A stretch of 36,506 nt of DNA. Origin: Candidatus Hydrogenedentota bacterium. GTDB lineage: Bacteria > Hydrogenedentota > Hydrogenedentia > Hydrogenedentales > JAEUWI01. The notes beneath the pieces are model-generated. The model had not been told where the DNA came from. It searched no databases and saw nothing but the letters and a program-made list of their open reading frames with translations. Shown here piece after piece: positions 26,031 to 34,817 of the stretch. The translations under genes and the position numbers were made by a program. Every line of letters starts with the position of its first letter. Position 1 is the first letter of the stretch. The DNA is taken from the NCBI GenBank assembly GCA_016182605.1, contig JACPGE010000027.1, positions 1-36,506 on the forward strand. Direction: 5' to 3'.

Positions 26031-27392
26031 GTGGTGGGCGTTCCAAGTACAGAACAACGATTGTCGGGCTGGGGGCGGCTGAATCCAGAGCTGTGCTCGG
26101 TCCACCGGCCGGAAAAGCACCGGACTGTTCGCGAGGCGGTGGAGCAGGCCGGCGGCACGCTGCTGGCCCGCGGACTCGGGCGCAGCTATGGCGACGCGGC
26201 AGTGAATGGCGGCGGCGGCGTGGTGGACATGACGCGCCTGAACCGCTTGCTCGCGTTTGACGCGGAGTCGGGGGTGGTGGAGTGCGAGGCGGGCGTGAGT
26301 CTGGCCGATTTGGTGGCGGCGTTCCTGCCCCGCGGCTGGTTCCTTCCTGTCACACCCGGCACCAAATTTGTCACGGTTGGCGGCGCCATCGCCCACGACA
26401 TCCACGGCAAGAACCACCACCGCGACGGGACCTTTGGCCAGTTTGTGCGCGAGTTCAAGCTGTTGATCGCGAATGGCGAGACCATTTCCTGCTCACGCAA
26501 AGAGAACCAGGACGTCTTCTGGGCCACGATAGGCGGCGCGGGCCTCACGGGAATCATCCTTTCCGCCTCGGTGCGGCTGCAGCCCGTGGAGAGCGCCTAC
26601 TATCTGGTGGACTACCGCCGCGCCAAAAATCTTGAGGACGCCCTGCGCATCTTCGCGGAGACCGATGAGAAGTACCAGTATTCGGTGGCGTGGATCGATT
26701 GCCTGGCGCGCGGAGGATCATTGGGGCGCTCCGTGTTAATGCTCGGCAATTCCGCACCGGTGAGCGCGCTGCCTGCGCACCTGCGCAACAACCCGCTGTG
26801 CCCGCGGGAGAAGCGCAAGACGAATGTGCCCGTGGACATGCCAGAGCTGTTGCTGAATCCCTTGAGCATGAAGATTTACAACACGCTGTTTCATGCGCGC
26901 AATCCGGAGCGCGATGGTGCCGTTGTAGACTTTGACACCTATTACTATCCGCTGGACAGCGTGCACAACTGGAACCGGCTCTACGGCAAGCGCGGCTTCG
27001 CCCAGTTTCAGGCCACGGTGCCGCCGGAGGGCGTTGCGGCGCTGGTGCAGATCCTGGAGCGGATCAGCGCTACGAAGAGCGGCTTCCTGGGCGTGTTGAA
27101 GGCCATGGGCGAACAGAATGAAGGGTTGCTGTCGCACCCGATCAAGGGCTACACGCTCACCCTCGACATCCCCAACCATGGCAAGCTGGGCCCCTTTCTG
27201 CACGGGCTGGACGAGATTCTGCTGGCGCATGGCGGGCGCATCTATCTCGCGAAGGACGCCGTGTCGCGCCCGGAGACGCTGGAGGCGATGTATCCGCGCC
27301 TGAAGCAGTTCCGCGCGGTGAAGGCGAAGGTGGATCCGGAACGGCGCTTCGATTCGAGCCAGGCGCGCCGCCTGGGCATTACAGGAGACTGA
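26031..27392 (+). CDS. dprE1: DprE1-like FAD-dependent sugar oxidase
   Basis: About 453 residues from a GTG at 26031, with aaagga at 26019-26024; this matches the length of mycobacterial DprE1 (461). An ATG at 25950 would add 27 residues but has a poorer site. DprE1 oxidises the 2'-OH of decaprenylphosphoryl-ribose, the first half of epimerisation to the arabinose donor. Shared features: RLSGWGRLNP, ARGLGRSYGDAAVNGGG (FAD binding, 46-62), HDIHGKNHH (122-130, flavin-site His125), FWATIGGAGLTGII, YYYPLD, GFLGVLKAMG and IYLAKDA with Lys408. At the position of mycobacterial Cys387 the sequence GYTLTLDI has Thr377. A DprE2-like gene follows after 4 bp. The true lipid and sugar are unknown. Confidence 0.9.
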   Translation: MVGVPSTEQRLSGWGRLNPELCSVHRPEKHRTVREAVEQAGGTLLARGLGRSYGDAAVNGGGGVVDMTRLNRLLAFDAESGVVECEAGVSLADLVAAFLPRGWFLPVTPGTKFVTVGGAIAHDIHGKNHHRDGTFGQFVREFKLLIANGETISCSRKENQDVFWATIGGAGLTGIILSASVRLQPVESAYYLVDYRRAKNLEDALRIFAETDEKYQYSVAWIDCLARGGSLGRSVLMLGNSAPVSALPAHLRNNPLCPREKRKTNVPVDMPELLLNPLSMKIYNTLFHARNPERDGAVVDFDTYYYPLDSVHNWNRLYGKRGFAQFQATVPPEGVAALVQILERISATKSGFLGVLKAMGEQNEGLLSHPIKGYTLTLDIPNHGKLGPFLHGLDEILLAHGGRIYLAKDAVSRPETLEAMYPRLKQFRAVKAKVDPERRFDSSQARRLGITGD

Positions 27393-27396
27393 CGCC

Positions 27397-28158
27397 ATGG
27401 CCGATGCAACAACGCGCCCGAGCGTAGTCATCCTGGGGGCGACATCCACAATCGCGAAGGCGGCCGCCCATGAATTTGCGCGGCGCGGCCATGCGGTCGT
27501 GCTCGGCGCGCAAGACCATAAAGAGAACAAACGCCACGCATCCGACATTGCCCTGCGCTACAACGTGCCATGTCACGCGCTGCGTTTCGACGCGCAGGAT
27601 TTCAAGAGTCACGCCGCGTGGTTCGAAGAGTGCAAAGCCGCCCTGGGCGGTGTGCCGACGGGCGTCGTGCTCTGCTTCGGGTTTATGGACGAACAAGCGA
27701 ACGCCCAGGCCAGCTTTGAGATTGCACAGAAGACGATCGATATCAACCTCACGGGCGCGGTATCCATTCTGGAGATCGTTGCCGCGGCCTTTGAAATGCG
27801 CAAGAGTGGATTCATCGGCGTGGTGTCTTCCGTGGCGGGCGATCGCGGCCGCCAGACGAACTACATTTACGGCTGTGCGAAGGCGGGCCTCACAACCTAT
27901 TGCCAGGGGCTGCGCAACCGCCTCTTCGCAAGCGGCGTGAGCGTCACCACGATCAAGCCCGGCTTTGTGGACACCAAGATGACCTATGGCCTGCCGCTGC
28001 CCGGCCCCCTCGTGGCCACGCCGGAAAAGGCGGGCGCGATCATCTGCAAGGCCGTGCTCGCGAGGAAGCACGAAGTCTACGTGCCCTTCTTCTGGCGTTT
28101 CATCATGCTGATCATACGCAGCATCCCCGAGTTCCAGTTCAAGAAGATGAAGATTTAG
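27397..28158 (+). CDS. dprE2: DprE2-like short-chain dehydrogenase
   Basis: 253 residues. In mycobacteria DprE2 reduces the keto intermediate made by DprE1, giving decaprenylphosphoryl-arabinose. The cofactor loop is GATSTIA (14-20), a DprE2-like variant of TGxxGIG; DINLTGAV follows, then VVSSVAGDRGR, Tyr158 and Lys162 (YGCAK), and a late KPGFVDTKMT. The C-terminus (FFWRFIMLIIRSIPE) is hydrophobic, which fits a membrane-lipid substrate. An aggag lies just before the ATG, and only 4 bp separate it from the oxidase gene, so the pair very likely works as a two-enzyme epimerase. Confidence 0.88.
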   Translation: MADATTRPSVVILGATSTIAKAAAHEFARRGHAVVLGAQDHKENKRHASDIALRYNVPCHALRFDAQDFKSHAAWFEECKAALGGVPTGVVLCFGFMDEQANAQASFEIAQKTIDINLTGAVSILEIVAAAFEMRKSGFIGVVSSVAGDRGRQTNYIYGCAKAGLTTYCQGLRNRLFASGVSVTTIKPGFVDTKMTYGLPLPGPLVATPEKAGAIICKAVLARKHEVYVPFFWRFIMLIIRSIPEFQFKKMKI

Positions 28159-28166
28159 GCGGGGAT

Positions 28167-28886
28167 TCAGCCGGCCATCAGCCCGGGGAGCGCATCCCGG
28201 AATGCCGCCCAACACGCGAAGGTGTGCTCTGCGGTGGTCGTTTCGGCGAAGCGGCTGTTCACTGCGGTGAAGAGTGCGCCCTGACCGCCAAGACGCTGCA
28301 CCCCCACAATGTCGGTGGGATCGAGATCGCCGATGTGCAAAAGCGCTTGCGGCGCCACGCCAAGTTTTTCCGCGGCTGCATGAAACATGCGCGGGTGCGG
28401 CTTGGCCACGCCCTCTTCGTCTGAGAAGACCGCCGCAGTCAAAAGCCCCGTGAAGCCATGTTCGTCAAGAAAGCGGCGCAACACATATCCGGGGTTCATG
28501 CCGCTGTCGCTGATGACGGCCACGGGCACATGGCTTTGCGCGGCGCGCACGGCGTCGAGCGCGCCCTCGATGGGCACGGGGGGAAAGGTGTAAATCGCCG
28601 TGGCGAAGAGTTCGGTCAGTTCGGTCTCGTCGGTTTCGCCGAGGGCAACACCGAGCCGCGTGGCGGTCATGCGCACGGCATCGACGGGATTGAGGGTGCG
28701 CTGTTCGCGCACGTGCGTGCGGAAGAATTCGGCGTGCACCTCGCCTTGTACTTCGAGCACCCGATCCAGTGCCACGCCGGTGCGGGCAGCGAAGCCTTCA
28801 CAGCGCATGCGGTGGCGCTCTTCACGATTGTCCTCGCGAAAGAGCGTGTTCCAGAAGTCGAAGGTAATGGCCTGGATGCCACTCAC
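28167..28886 (-). CDS. HAD-superfamily hydrolase
   Basis: 239 residues from a GTG at 28886 that overlaps the TGA of the upstream acyltransferase (GTGA). Longer in-frame readings lie out of frame within that gene and are not credible. Motif I is FDFWNTL with nucleophile Asp10; position +2, normally Asp, is Trp12, as in a known DFWxTL subgroup. Motif II is VAVISDSG (Ser126), motif III Lys162 in GVAKPHPRMF, motif IV GDLDPTDIVG (Asp187, Asp192). A helical cap fills residues about 16-95. Likely a phosphatase or related enzyme; the missing general acid could mean altered chemistry. Substrate unknown. Confidence 0.9.
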   Translation of the reverse strand: MSGIQAITFDFWNTLFREDNREERHRMRCEGFAARTGVALDRVLEVQGEVHAEFFRTHVREQRTLNPVDAVRMTATRLGVALGETDETELTELFATAIYTFPPVPIEGALDAVRAAQSHVPVAVISDSGMNPGYVLRRFLDEHGFTGLLTAAVFSDEEGVAKPHPRMFHAAAEKLGVAPQALLHIGDLDPTDIVGVQRLGGQGALFTAVNSRFAETTTAEHTFACWAAFRDALPGLMAG

Positions 28887-29747: not shown

Positions 29748-31976
29748 ATGATCGCCGCCAGTCAGCCCCGGCCCGGCGACACGCTCGGCAAATACCAGAT
29801 TCTCTCCGAGATTGGCCGTGGCGGCATGGGGGTGGTTTACCTTGCGCTGGACCAGTCCCTGGATCGGCAGGTGGCCCTGAAAGTATTGCCTCCGAGCCTG
29901 ACGATGGACACGGAGTTCATTCGGCGTTTCCGGCAGGAGGCGAAGACCATCGCGACGATCGCGCATCCCAATGTGGTCCATGTGCATGCGTTTGAGATCG
30001 TGGACGGCATACCCCTTATCGAGATGGAGTATATCGAAGGGGGATCGCTGGCGCGGAAGCTGTACACCGGCGCGGTTTCGCCCGCTGCGGTGGTGCGCTA
30101 TGCCTATGGTGTGGCGGGCGCGCTGGCCTGGTGCCACGGCATGAACGCGGTGCACCGGGACGTGAAGACCTCGAATATTCTAATCGACAACCGGAACCAG
30201 GCCCGTCTGGCGGATTTTGGCATTGCAAAGGCGATGGCGGATACGGAGCTGGATCAGTTTACGCAGTCGCGGTCGGGCAATTTCCGGGGCACGCCCCACT
30301 ATGTGCCTCCGGAGGCGTGGGATGGCCAGGCGCCAACGCCTGCCTGGGATATCTATTCGCTGGGCGTGGTGATGTTTGAGGCGGCGACGGGCACGTTGCC
30401 GTACCCGGCAAACACGCCGCTGGAACTGATCAAGCGTATCGCGTCGTCGCCGCCGCCGTCCGTGCGCGGCACGCATCTGGGCATCTCGGACTCATTGGGC
30501 GCGCTTATCGAGGACATGCTGAAGACGGACCCCGAGCGCCGGGTGGGCGACGCGGCGGCGGTGTGCAAGCGGCTGGAAGACACGCCGGAATATGCCGCGC
30601 CGGGCAACACGCGGAACGACACGCAGGTAATTCCCCGGCCATCGCGCCGTGTGAAGCTTCCCGCACAGGGACCGCGCAGCATTCGATTGGCCACAGCGTT
30701 ATGGTCGGGGCTGCTCTTGCTTGTTCTTGCTGTTGCGTGCGCCTTCTATTTCGCCCCTGCGGGCCGCACCACCGCCTCTGGCACAATGGCGGCCATGGAG
30801 CGGGCGCCACTGCTCGAATACAGCCGGCTGCCGGCAAACTATTCCGATGACATGGTGCTTTCGCATTCCGGCAATGTTGCGGGAGGCGAATACCGGATTT
30901 TTCGCACACATCCGCCCAGTGTTTCCGGCTGGCCGGAAGAATCCTGGCTCGTCAGTTTTGCGGCGGACGGCGCACCTATCGCGGTGGTGGCCTTCAGTCT
31001 GGCGCGATTGGCGGCATTCAGCCTGGCGCCGTCGGGCAATACGGATGAGTACGTTGTTGAGGGACAGTGGGCCGGCTATATGGATGCGCAGGGCGCCACG
31101 TTCCGGCGCGGCGCGGTCCGCGGCCATCTTCAGCTGCCGGTTTCAACGCATCATCTTGTGGGCGTGCTCGAATACACTGCGGAGCAGTTGGGCACCAGTG
31201 TTGAGATACCGGTGACGGCTTCGCTGCACGACACGATCGCGACGGACACCCGCTTCGTCCACGAACTAGAGGCGTCGCCCTATCTGCAACCGTTGCTCTT
31301 TTCCGAGTTGATACCGCGCAGGCAGTCCTGGGTGAATGAGATCGCGTCGCTTTTTCCCTTCCACAATGAAGAGGCCGGAAGGGCCGTGCTGGAGCCGTTG
31401 CCAGAGGGCAGTTTCTCCGTAGACGGCGCTCTGGACGATTCGTTGTGGGCTGCGCGCTTTTCCACGGCGGAGAGTGCGCCGGGGGCGCTGGAAGGCTTGC
31501 CGCATGCGGCACGGCCCCGGATGCACTTCGCCTGCGATGGACAGCAGTTGGCCCTGGGCATGCAGTGCCGGCCTCCCGCCAGTACGGGGAAGCTGTTTTT
31601 CAAGCTGCACTTCATGCCGGCATTTATGGCGCCTCTGCAGGGGAGTCCGGTATTGCGTGTGGCCATCGACATGAGCAGTGGCGAAGCTACCGAGTGGCCT
31701 GGCAGCCGGGATGCGGCGCCAAGACCGGCCCAAGGGGCCTTCGCCGTGAGCCGCTCTGGGGACTGGTGGAATGTGGAGGGGGCGCTGCCGCTCTCCGGCT
31801 TTGGCGAGGCCGTGGCGGCGCCCACGCATGGGAGCCTGTGGCGCTTGAATGCCACCGTGTATGAAGAATTTGAATCGGGTGAGAAAGAGGTGCTGTGCCG
31901 GTGGGGCGGCCCGGACGCTGCGGATCTTGCGCACGGCGCGGTGCTTCGCTTTGAGGAAAAAGGAATGAAGGAATAG
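29748..31976 (+). CDS. transmembrane Ser/Thr protein kinase with outer CBM9-like domain
   Basis: 742 residues. The kinase domain (about 15-280) is complete: GRGGMGVVY loop (23-31), Lys45 in VALKVL, HRDVKTSN with Asp138, DFG (156-158), GTPHYVPPEA and DIYSLGVVMFE. One membrane helix lies at about 315-336. The outer part (340-742) begins with a domain I do not recognise (about 345-550) and ends with VDGALDDSLWAARF at about 558 onward, then GDWWNVEGALPLSGFG and SLWRLNATVYEE near 690-725, the pattern of CBM9/DOMON-like carbohydrate-binding domains. Expected role: sense an extracytoplasmic ligand, perhaps a glycan, and phosphorylate cytoplasmic targets. It lies 6 bp upstream of the ELWxTDGT gene in one operon. 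Confidence 0.92.
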   Translation: MIAASQPRPGDTLGKYQILSEIGRGGMGVVYLALDQSLDRQVALKVLPPSLTMDTEFIRRFRQEAKTIATIAHPNVVHVHAFEIVDGIPLIEMEYIEGGSLARKLYTGAVSPAAVVRYAYGVAGALAWCHGMNAVHRDVKTSNILIDNRNQARLADFGIAKAMADTELDQFTQSRSGNFRGTPHYVPPEAWDGQAPTPAWDIYSLGVVMFEAATGTLPYPANTPLELIKRIASSPPPSVRGTHLGISDSLGALIEDMLKTDPERRVGDAAAVCKRLEDTPEYAAPGNTRNDTQVIPRPSRRVKLPAQGPRSIRLATALWSGLLLLVLAVACAFYFAPAGRTTASGTMAAMERAPLLEYSRLPANYSDDMVLSHSGNVAGGEYRIFRTHPPSVSGWPEESWLVSFAADGAPIAVVAFSLARLAAFSLAPSGNTDEYVVEGQWAGYMDAQGATFRRGAVRGHLQLPVSTHHLVGVLEYTAEQLGTSVEIPVTASLHDTIATDTRFVHELEASPYLQPLLFSELIPRRQSWVNEIASLFPFHNEEAGRAVLEPLPEGSFSVDGALDDSLWAARFSTAESAPGALEGLPHAARPRMHFACDGQQLALGMQCRPPASTGKLFFKLHFMPAFMAPLQGSPVLRVAIDMSSGEATEWPGSRDAAPRPAQGAFAVSRSGDWWNVEGALPLSGFGEAVAAPTHGSLWRLNATVYEEFESGEKEVLCRWGGPDAADLAHGAVLRFEEKGMKE

Positions 31977-31982
31977 CCTTTC

Positions 31983-34817
31983 GTGGGTCCGCACCCGGAT
32001 AGTGCGCGCCAGCGCATGACTGCGCCGCTTCGGCCTTTCGGGTGGTGGCGCAAGAGTCTGAATCTGCCTTGCTGGCCGTCTTTCACGCTTGCCGTATGGG
32101 TTGTGGCGATCCTGTGCCAGGCGCAGACCGCGCAGCGGGAAGGCCTTCTGCTTCCGAACCCCGGGGCCAGCATTGAGGCCATCCATGCGGTCAACGGCCG
32201 GATACTGGTGGATGCGGTCGATCCCATTTTCGGCCGCGAATGGTGGGCCTTCGATCCGGCTGTCAATGAGACATCGCTGGTGCGTGACCTGTTGCCAGGC
32301 CGCACTGGCGGGCATACGATGGACTCCATCGTCATGGGGAATCATGTGTACTTTATCGCGTTGGAGAGCGCCCGTTCGACCAGCCTGTGGCGCACGGATG
32401 GCACGCCGGCCGGAACAGAGTGGGTAGCCTCCATTTGCCCGAATCCCGTCATCGATATAATTGTGCCCCACTTCGCTACGGCGCACGGCCTCATCCTGTT
32501 TGTTGCGGACGACCAGCAGCACGGAACGGAGCTGTGGCGTTCTGATGGAAGCACGGAGGGCACGTGGATGCTCAAGGATCTGCACGCGGGCAATTCGCTC
32601 ACGGGCACTACATCTCCACCGGCACCGTTCCGGGACTATTTCCTCTTCCGTGCGACGCCGGCCGCGGGGCCGGGAGAATTGTGGCGCACGGATGGAAGCA
32701 GGGAGAACACCTATCCGATCGTGGTGGACGGCATGGACTTGAAGGCCTTTCAGGGAGGGATGGCTGCGCTGGGCGATCGCGCGATATTTACCGCAGGCAC
32801 GCCGGAGCAGGGCCTGGAACCCTGGTACACCGATGGCACCGCCGAGGGAACACGGCTGTTGCGCGACATCCTGCCGGGCCCGGGCAGTTCGGATCTGACG
32901 AATCTGTTTGTCTTTCAGGGCATGTGCTATTTCCAAGCAAAGGACGATGAGCATGGCGCGGAACTCTGGCGGACCGATGGCACCCCCGAGGGTACCGGTT
33001 TGTTCAAGGATATAGACCCTGGTGGCGAGGGCGGCACACCCGCGCCGTTCGTTCAATCTGGCGATCGGTTCTACTTCGTCGCGCGCGACGCGGTGCACGG
33101 CAACGAACTCTGGTGTTCCGATGGCACGCCAGAAGGCACCCGTATCGCGGTCGATGTCTACCCGGGCACCATGTCCTCCAATCCTTATCAGATCACCGCG
33201 GCGGAGGGCGGCGTATTCTTCAGCGCGAATGAGCCCGCGCATGGGGAGGAACTCTGGTTCACCGATGGCAGCGCCGCAGGGACCCGGCTCGTTAAAGACA
33301 TCAACCCGGGACCTGCCCTGTCCGAGCCCTATTACTTGTGTTACGCGGGCGGCATACTCTACTTTGAAGCGGATGACGGCCGCCATGGCAGTGAGTTGTG
33401 GCGCAGCGATGGCGCCGAGGCAGGCACCCAGCTCGTCGCGGATATCGCGCTGCCTCCCGCGCCGCTGCCCGCGTCTGAACCAGGAATGCTCACTGCGGGC
33501 GAGGGCCACGTCTGCTTTATTGCCCGAGACCGCGATGCGAACTGGTGCCTGTACCGGACCAATGGGCAAGCTGGGAACCGGACCCTTCACACGGTGTTGC
33601 CGGGTCAGGCCCGCAAGCAGGACGTCTTGCAGATGCTCCATGCGGGCGGGCGCCTCTTTGTGATCCTGCGCACCGGTGAATTGGCCGCGGCCCTCTGGGT
33701 GCTGGAGGAGGCGAGTGGCCGCTTCGAGACGGTGGGGGAAATGGCTTTGCCTCCCGGCGCGGCAACGGACCGGCTGATCGCGCAGGCAGGCGAGACCGTG
33801 TATTTTCCGCGGCAGGACGCGGCGAGCGGAACGGAACTCTGGGCGCTGAACGGAACCACGGGGACGCCGGCCCTCGTGCTGGACCTCAAGTCCGGCGTCG
33901 AGAGCGCCTTTCCCGGGGAGCTTTGCGCGGCAGGATCGGGGGTTTATTTCACGGCGGACGACGGAACGCACGGCATGGAATTGTGGCGGCTTGGACAGGG
34001 CGCACCCGAACTGGTTTTGGACATTGCACCGGGCCGGGACAGTTCCTCACCCTCGGACTTGTGCATGCTGGGCGATACACTCTACTTCATCGCGGACGAT
34101 GGCGTGCATGGTGTGGAGCTGTGGAGCAGCGGGGGCACGGCGGCCACCACCCGCCTCGTGGCGGACATCAATCCGGTACAGGATGCGCGCGCTGTGGCGC
34201 CCGCGCACCTGAGCCCCTTGGATGGCCGGCTTTTTTTCGCCGCCCACGACGGTGTGCACGGCGCCGAGCTTTGGATGGCGCAGGGCGATACACCCACAGC
34301 CGCGTTGGTCCGCGATCTCTATCCCGGTCCGGCCTCCTCCTTTCCTGATGGCTTCATTGCGTTCGCCGGTCAGGTCTATTTTTCCGCAGAAAGCAGGGAC
34401 GATGGCATCGAGCTTTGGGTCAGCGATGGTACCAGCGATGGCACCCACACCACAACGGATCTGACCACAGGCCCGGCAAGCAGCCACCCGCGCCACTTGA
34501 CGGTTTTCGGGAGCCGCCTTTATTTCAGTGCCGCTTCGGGCAATCCGGTCGAGGAGGCCGAGCTGTGGTCTACGGACGGCACAACCTTTGACGGATATCA
34601 CAATATCGCAAATGAGCCGGGCTCCTTTCCCGAGGAACTGACGGTGCTTGGCGATGTGCTGTTGATCACGGCCGATGATCGGGATTTCGGCCGGGAAATA
34701 TGGCGCATCTTCAAGGACCCCACGATGCCGGGCACCCAACGGGAGCTGCTGATTTCCCCGCCACCCAATGCCACGGTGCGCATCCCCTTTGTACCCGCGC
34801 AGCTTCCTGCGCGATAG
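31983..34817 (+). CDS. secreted ELWxTDGT-repeat protein
   Basis: 944 residues from a GTG at 31983, with aagga ten bases upstream; an ATG at 32016 is an alternative that keeps the signal peptide (hydrophobic FTLAVWVVAILC, cleavage after AQAQTA, near residue 50). The rest is about fifteen units of 55-70 residues, each with a strand such as VYFxADDGxHG, then ELWRTDGTxxGT and LVxDIxPGxxSS. Early units fit the motif well (ELWRSDGSTEGT, ELWRTDGTPEGT, ELWCSDGTPEGT); the 8th to 13th are more varied. Such repeats probably form beta-propeller-like folds and occur in secreted or surface proteins of unknown function. Coupling to the kinase suggests a surface partner or ligand. Confidence 0.9.
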   Translation: MGPHPDSARQRMTAPLRPFGWWRKSLNLPCWPSFTLAVWVVAILCQAQTAQREGLLLPNPGASIEAIHAVNGRILVDAVDPIFGREWWAFDPAVNETSLVRDLLPGRTGGHTMDSIVMGNHVYFIALESARSTSLWRTDGTPAGTEWVASICPNPVIDIIVPHFATAHGLILFVADDQQHGTELWRSDGSTEGTWMLKDLHAGNSLTGTTSPPAPFRDYFLFRATPAAGPGELWRTDGSRENTYPIVVDGMDLKAFQGGMAALGDRAIFTAGTPEQGLEPWYTDGTAEGTRLLRDILPGPGSSDLTNLFVFQGMCYFQAKDDEHGAELWRTDGTPEGTGLFKDIDPGGEGGTPAPFVQSGDRFYFVARDAVHGNELWCSDGTPEGTRIAVDVYPGTMSSNPYQITAAEGGVFFSANEPAHGEELWFTDGSAAGTRLVKDINPGPALSEPYYLCYAGGILYFEADDGRHGSELWRSDGAEAGTQLVADIALPPAPLPASEPGMLTAGEGHVCFIARDRDANWCLYRTNGQAGNRTLHTVLPGQARKQDVLQMLHAGGRLFVILRTGELAAALWVLEEASGRFETVGEMALPPGAATDRLIAQAGETVYFPRQDAASGTELWALNGTTGTPALVLDLKSGVESAFPGELCAAGSGVYFTADDGTHGMELWRLGQGAPELVLDIAPGRDSSSPSDLCMLGDTLYFIADDGVHGVELWSSGGTAATTRLVADINPVQDARAVAPAHLSPLDGRLFFAAHDGVHGAELWMAQGDTPTAALVRDLYPGPASSFPDGFIAFAGQVYFSAESRDDGIELWVSDGTSDGTHTTTDLTTGPASSHPRHLTVFGSRLYFSAASGNPVEEAELWSTDGTTFDGYHNIANEPGSFPEELTVLGDVLLITADDRDFGREIWRIFKDPTMPGTQRELLISPPPNATVRIPFVPAQLPAR

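What the first reader, a model, noticed from the sequence alone, without database searches (positions are those of the whole stretch)
26031..28158. DprE1/DprE2-like pair outside Actinobacteria, with Thr at the Cys387 position
The oxidase matches mycobacterial DprE1 along its length, with the flavin His and active-site Lys kept, and is followed after 4 bp by a DprE2-like reductase. This suggests a lipid-linked D-arabinose (or similar 2'-epimerised sugar) donor in a Gram-negative. No UbiA-type phosphoribosyltransferase or arabinosyltransferase is in the window. In GYTLTLDI the residue matching Cys387, the covalent target of benzothiazinones, is Thr377.
Basis: partly seen in the sequence, partly recalled or inferred. 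Interest (0 to 1): 0.62.

Follow-up and report, generated by a model that had tools for sequence, protein, structure and literature searches.

The report
DprE1/DprE2 arabinose-donor epimerase gene pair
Two adjacent genes in an uncultured outer-membrane bacterium encode the enzyme pair that turns lipid-linked ribose into lipid-linked arabinose, as tuberculosis bacteria do for their cell wall; such pairs are already described in other Gram-negative bacteria, so this is a well-supported new member of a known pathway rather than a surprise.

Summary
ORF 26031-27392 (+) is a DprE1: it passes the NCBIfam equivalog cut-off (521 vs 500 bits), its only strong PDB matches are mycobacterial DprE1, and the flavin-linking His, Lys418 and other active-site residues are conserved. 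Four bases on, ORF 27397-28158 (+) is its SDR partner; closest solved protein is M. tuberculosis DprE2. It misses the DprE2 equivalog cut-off but passes PRK07102, the model that SDR partners of DprE1 in Rhizobium, Salipiger and Cereibacter pass. The missing first enzyme, a UbiA-type polyprenyl-phosphoribose synthase, is elsewhere in the genome (contig C56). In 21 of 25 relatives with DprE1 the three genes are adjacent; 43 of 68 genomes of this phylum have DprE1. Thr at the Cys387 position is real but normal for the lineage (Thr 17, Ala 8 of 25 relatives; Ala in 15 of 15 other Gram-negatives; Cys in 63 of 64 Actinobacteria). Published work already reports DprE1/DprE2 homologues in Gram-negative arabinofuranose pathways. 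Best reading: synthesis of a polyprenyl-phosphate D-arabinofuranose donor for an unknown surface glycan. Phosphatase, flippase and arabinosyltransferase are not identified; no arabinose is shown. New member of a known kind.

The parts
26031..27392 (+). dprE1: FAD-dependent polyprenyl-phosphoryl-beta-D-ribose 2'-oxidase (453 aa from GTG 26031; open frame begins at ATG 25800)
   Evidence: NF053785 DprE1 equivalog 521 bits, cut-off 500; PDB DprE1 E=4e-106; active-site residues conserved
26403..26411 (+). codons for H125-G126-K127, equivalent to H132 (flavin-linked His), G133, K134 of M. tuberculosis DprE1
   Evidence: alignment, invariant in all 106 sequences; codon positions counted from GTG 26031
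27159..27161 (+). codon for T377 at the position of Cys387, the covalent target of benzothiazinones
   Evidence: alignment: Thr or Ala throughout the order, Ala in other Gram-negatives, Cys in Actinobacteria
27252..27254 (+). codon for K408, equivalent to active-site Lys418
   Evidence: alignment, invariant
27397..28158 (+). dprE2-like SDR: polyprenyl-phosphoryl-2-keto-erythro-pentofuranose reductase (253 aa)
   Evidence: PRK07102 equivalog 294 bits, cut-off 267; NF053786 DprE2 174 bits, cut-off 250 not met; best PDB match is M. tuberculosis DprE2; Ser-Tyr-Lys and SSVAGDRG motif conserved

Best explanation
The two genes encode the DprE1-DprE2 epimerase of a lipid-linked D-arabinofuranose pathway in a Gram-negative, uncultured lineage. 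[quoted passage not shown] A phosphatase, not identified, removes the 5-phosphate. DprE1, with FAD, oxidises C2 of the ribose to a ketone, and DprE2, with NAD(P)H, reduces it to the opposite configuration, giving polyprenyl-phosphoryl-D-arabinofuranose. A flippase and a GT-C arabinosyltransferase, not identified, then place the arabinose on a surface glycan. Shown by sequence: identity of both enzymes, conserved catalytic residues, presence of the synthase, conserved operon in relatives. Inferred: the chemistry, the lipid, and all later steps.
For: DprE1 equivalog cut-off met; full-length match to solved DprE1 and DprE2; active-site residues invariant. Own genome has one DPPR synthase: NF008977 299.5 bits (cut-off 234) and NF008978 215.7 (cut-off 207), while its other two UbiA proteins are heme O synthase and MenA. 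dprE1-dprE2-synthase adjacent in 21 of 25 relatives with DprE1. All 26 genomes with DprE1 (own plus 25) have the synthase, against 7 of 14 without DprE1. In alphaproteobacteria the same two enzymes sit with UbiA and usually GtrA genes. Published precedent links DprE1/DprE2 homologues to Araf-containing glycans in Gram-negatives (PMC11127046).
Against: The synthase is not linked to the pair in this genome (contig C56 vs C82). DprE2 misses the curated DprE2 equivalog cut-off. No GtrA-type flippase and no Emb-type arabinosyltransferase was found. The 5-phosphatase is unassigned. No glycan data exist.
Confidence: 0.87

Rival explanations
1. The oxidase is another VAO-family sugar or lactone oxidase that only resembles DprE1, and the SDR is an unrelated neighbour.
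For: The two Pfam hits are the generic FAD_binding_4 and ALO domains; the C-terminal match to ALO is shared by other sugar oxidases.
Against: Other VAO-type models score at most 76 bits against 521 for DprE1; the next PDB matches are at 51 bits against 359; the pair is kept together with the phosphoribosyltransferase across the order.
Confidence: 0.03
2. The pair makes a lipid-linked pentofuranose other than D-arabinose, or the 2-keto intermediate is used for another product.
For: DprE2 belongs to the PRK07102 group rather than the NF053786 DprE2 group; pocket positions 315 and 385 differ from Actinobacteria.
Against: The same PRK07102-type partner is found with DprE1 in several alphaproteobacteria, and published Araf-containing systems carry DprE1/DprE2 homologues while Xylf systems carry a different epimerase (PMC11127046).
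Confidence: 0.08
3. The pair is a relic or recent acquisition and does not work with the distant synthase in this genome.
For: The pair is separated from the synthase here, unlike most relatives.
Against: Both frames are intact with all catalytic residues; the pair's DprE1 nests within the order's own clade, not with a donor lineage; the synthase is intact and over its cut-off; G010 and G033 show the same separation.
Confidence: 0.02

Closest known systems
[quoted passage not shown]
   Same: Both enzymes, their order, active-site His and Lys, and a partner UbiA phosphoribosyltransferase.
   Different: Thr in place of Cys387; DprE2 of the PRK07102 type; no Emb-type arabinosyltransferase and no GtrA-type flippase found in the genome; arabinogalactan is not expected in an LPS-bearing cell.
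Gram-negative pentofuranose (Araf) side-chain systems with DprE1/DprE2 homologues, Kelly et al. 2024, PMC11127046; and the P. aeruginosa D-Araf pilin pathway cited there (Harvey et al. 2011, not held)
   Same: Polyprenyl phosphoribose synthase plus DprE1/DprE2 homologues in a Gram-negative.
   Different: Here the flippase and GT-C are not identified and the acceptor glycan is unknown; the lineage is a separate phylum of fragmented genomes.
Alphaproteobacterial UbiA-(GtrA)-DprE1-DprE2 clusters (Rhizobium, Sinorhizobium, Salipiger, Cereibacter, Azospirillum)
   Same: DprE1 with a PRK07102-type SDR and a UbiA prenyltransferase.
   Different: UbiA there can be the long PRK08238 type (tested for Rhizobium); GtrA is usually adjacent; the Cys387 position is Ala.

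Membership tests
DprE1 (NF053785) | Score above curated equivalog cut-off of 500 bits | tested here: met
   521.1 bits; alphaproteobacterial DprE1 tested fall below it, 318-411 bits
DprE1 (NF053785) | Flavin-linked His132 and active-site Lys418, with Y60, K134, K367, Q334, Q336, Y415 | tested here: met
   all present and invariant across 106 sequences
DprE1 (NF053785) | Cys387, target of covalent inhibitors (a feature of the mycobacterial enzyme, not a requirement of the family) | tested here: not met
   Thr377; Nocardia brasiliensis has a DprE1 with Ser there (PMC4608729), so this does not exclude membership
DprE1 (NF053785) | Oxidises polyprenyl-phosphoribose at C2 | not testable with these tools
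   needs enzyme assay
DprE2, model NF053786 | Score above curated cut-off of 250 bits | tested here: not met
   174 bits; partners of DprE1 in Rhizobium, Salipiger, Cereibacter also miss it, 172-196 bits
PRK07102 SDR group (partner of DprE1 in Gram-negatives) | Score above curated cut-off of 267 bits | tested here: met
   294.5 bits; 323-361 bits in Rhizobium, Salipiger, Cereibacter partners; SC52 partner 230, below cut-off
DprE2-like SDR | Catalytic Ser, Tyr and Lys and conserved SS-x-A-G-x-R motif | tested here: met
   conserved with M. tuberculosis DprE2 and relatives
Lipid-linked D-arabinofuranose pathway | Polyprenyl-phosphate phosphoribosyltransferase in the genome | tested here: met
   C56:37509-38363, NF008977 299.5 bits, cut-off 234
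Lipid-linked D-arabinofuranose pathway | Flippase of GtrA/Rv3789 type | tested here: not met
   no PF04138 match in own genome; other flippase types not searched
Lipid-linked D-arabinofuranose pathway | Arabinosyltransferase of GT-C type | tested here: inconclusive
   no PF04602; 22 PMT_2 matches, none assigned
Lipid-linked D-arabinofuranose pathway | D-arabinose in a surface glycan | not testable with these tools
   needs sugar analysis

The most novel reading that the evidence does not exclude
A whole little-known phylum with an LPS-type envelope makes a D-arabinofuranose-bearing surface glycan through a DprE1/DprE2/UbiA operon, with a flippase and arabinosyltransferase of kinds not yet described, since no GtrA flippase or Emb-type enzyme was found in the genome.
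Probability: 0.3. Interest if true: 0.45.

Novelty: new member of a known kind. Interest (0 to 1): 0.27.

Why it matters
It extends the DprE1/DprE2 pathway to a phylum-level lineage and predicts D-arabinose in its surface glycans. It also shows that Cys387 is essentially an actinobacterial feature in the sequences compared, with Thr or Ala elsewhere, so covalent DprE1 inhibitors would not be expected to act through that residue outside Actinobacteria.

Tried and rejected
Emb-type arabinosyltransferase in own genome: none. GtrA flippase: none. HAD hydrolase (28167-28835, minus strand) as the missing phosphatase: convergent with the pair, and no homologue near the pair in relatives, so not assigned. 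PMT_2 GT-C next to the operon in G005 and G006 as arabinosyltransferase: a 45% homologue exists in own genome (C127), but the family is present in 32 of 40 genomes including several without the synthase, and linkage was seen only in those two, so co-occurrence does not support it. MFS_2 transporter next to synthase-glgC as flippase: linked in own genome and six relatives but absent from 21 of 40 genomes, including many with DprE1, so not assigned. First readings of L001 and L003 used the wrong strand and were redone. One Pfam batch failed on coordinates and was not repeated in full. Harvey 2011 is not held. Literature searches on rhizobial arabinosylation and on Hydrogenedentes with arabinose gave nothing directly on DprE1.

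Full report
What is there. The window is the whole of contig C82 (36506 bases) of a 6.76 Mb, 130-contig genome, 97.9% complete. LpxC is present at 335 bits, so an LPS-type outer membrane is likely. ORF 26031-27392 (+) and ORF 27397-28158 (+) lie four bases apart, with AAAGGA upstream of the first and AGGAG upstream of the second.

Identity of the oxidase. It passes the curated NCBIfam DprE1 equivalog (521 vs 500 bits; next model 76 bits). The nine best PDB matches are all mycobacterial DprE1 at 308-359 bits; the next, xylitol oxidase, is at 51 bits. In an alignment of 106 sequences, Y60, G117, H132, G133, K134, L317, Q334, Q336, V365, K367, Y415 and K418 of M. tuberculosis DprE1 are invariant. 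In a maximum-likelihood tree of 53 sequences the window protein sits in a set of 22 sequences that are all from its own order (99/97), apart from the actinobacterial clade (100/100) and from the alphaproteobacterial and cyanobacterial sequences. Four sequences of family f7 of the order fall outside that set, so a single origin for the order is not shown.

Identity of the reductase. Its closest solved relative is M. tuberculosis DprE2 (E=3.5e-26 over the full length). It scores 174 bits against the DprE2 equivalog (cut-off 250) but 294 against PRK07102 (cut-off 267). As a control, the SDRs that partner DprE1 in Rhizobium leguminosarum, Salipiger and Cereibacter behave the same way: PRK07102 323-361 bits, NF053786 172-196 bits; a fourth, from Rhodobacteraceae SC52, misses both. 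The catalytic Tyr and Lys and the SS-x-A-G-x-R motif are conserved.

The Cys387 position. T377 aligns with Cys387. The residue is Cys in 63 of 64 Actinobacteria (the exception is a Dietzia, L057), Thr in 17 and Ala in 8 of 25 relatives, and Ala in all 15 other Gram-negatives. Substitution of Cys387 makes M. tuberculosis DprE1 resistant to covalent benzothiazinones (PMC6153800), and a natural Ser variant is known in Nocardia (PMC4608729). The Thr is therefore a lineage trait.

Rest of the pathway. The genome has three UbiA-family proteins: heme O synthase, MenA, and a polyprenyl-phosphate phosphoribosyltransferase at C56:37509-38363 (-), above its cut-off. Downstream of it lie a GlgC-type nucleotidyltransferase and an MFS_2 transporter. 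Among 40 genomes (own plus 39 relatives), 26 have full DprE1 matches and all 26 have the synthase; of the other 14, seven have it above cut-off. These counts are not independent, because the genomes are related. In 21 of the 25 relatives with DprE1, dprE1, dprE2 and the synthase are adjacent; the exceptions are G003, G010, G033 and G014, the last at contig ends. Across the 68 genomes of the phylum held, 43 have DprE1. No Emb-type arabinosyltransferase and no GtrA flippase was found; 22 PMT_2 matches exist and none could be assigned.

Comparison with what is known. Kelly et al. 2024 (PMC11127046) describe polyprenyl phosphoribose synthases in Gram-negatives, report DprE1/E2 homologues in systems whose glycans contain Araf, and cite the P. 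aeruginosa D-Araf pilin pathway. Named alphaproteobacterial plasmids show UbiA, usually GtrA, DprE1 and SDR genes together. The kind is thus already known; the lineage and the unidentified later steps are what is new.

Conclusion. The genes most likely make polyprenyl-phosphoryl-D-arabinofuranose. Enzyme identities and gene conservation are shown by sequence; the chemistry, lipid carrier and end product are inferred. The phylum could not be named with these tools; that all 68 genomes held for it fall in one order would fit a small candidate phylum such as Hydrogenedentota, but this is a guess from general knowledge and was not tested.

Noticed in passing
G013, G015, G019, G021, G024, G026, G036; loci L148-L154: Seven relatives have the polyprenyl-phosphoribose synthase above its cut-off but no DprE1 match; they may use ribofuranose or another epimerase. 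In G021 the synthase lies at a contig end, so an assembly gap is possible there.
   Followed up: partly
L100:13502-14845 (own genome C56) and 12 loci of relatives: A GlgC-type nucleotidyltransferase gene lies next to or near the synthase in 13 loci, including when dprE1/dprE2 are elsewhere; its link to the pathway is unexplained.
   Followed up: partly
L100:12038-13492 (own genome C56); G012, G020, G021, G025, G030, G038: An MFS_2-family transporter gene lies close to the synthase in own genome and six relatives; possible flippase or an unrelated sugar transporter.
   Followed up: partly
L160:1680-3257 and L170:5241-6809: A PMT_2 GT-C-like protein follows dprE1-dprE2-synthase-glgC in G005 and G006; a 45% homologue is in own genome at C127:23554-25047.
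   Followed up: partly
window 31983-34817 (+): 944-aa protein with 13 ELWxxDGT repeat stretches, just after a Ser/Thr protein kinase gene (29748-31976).
   Followed up: no
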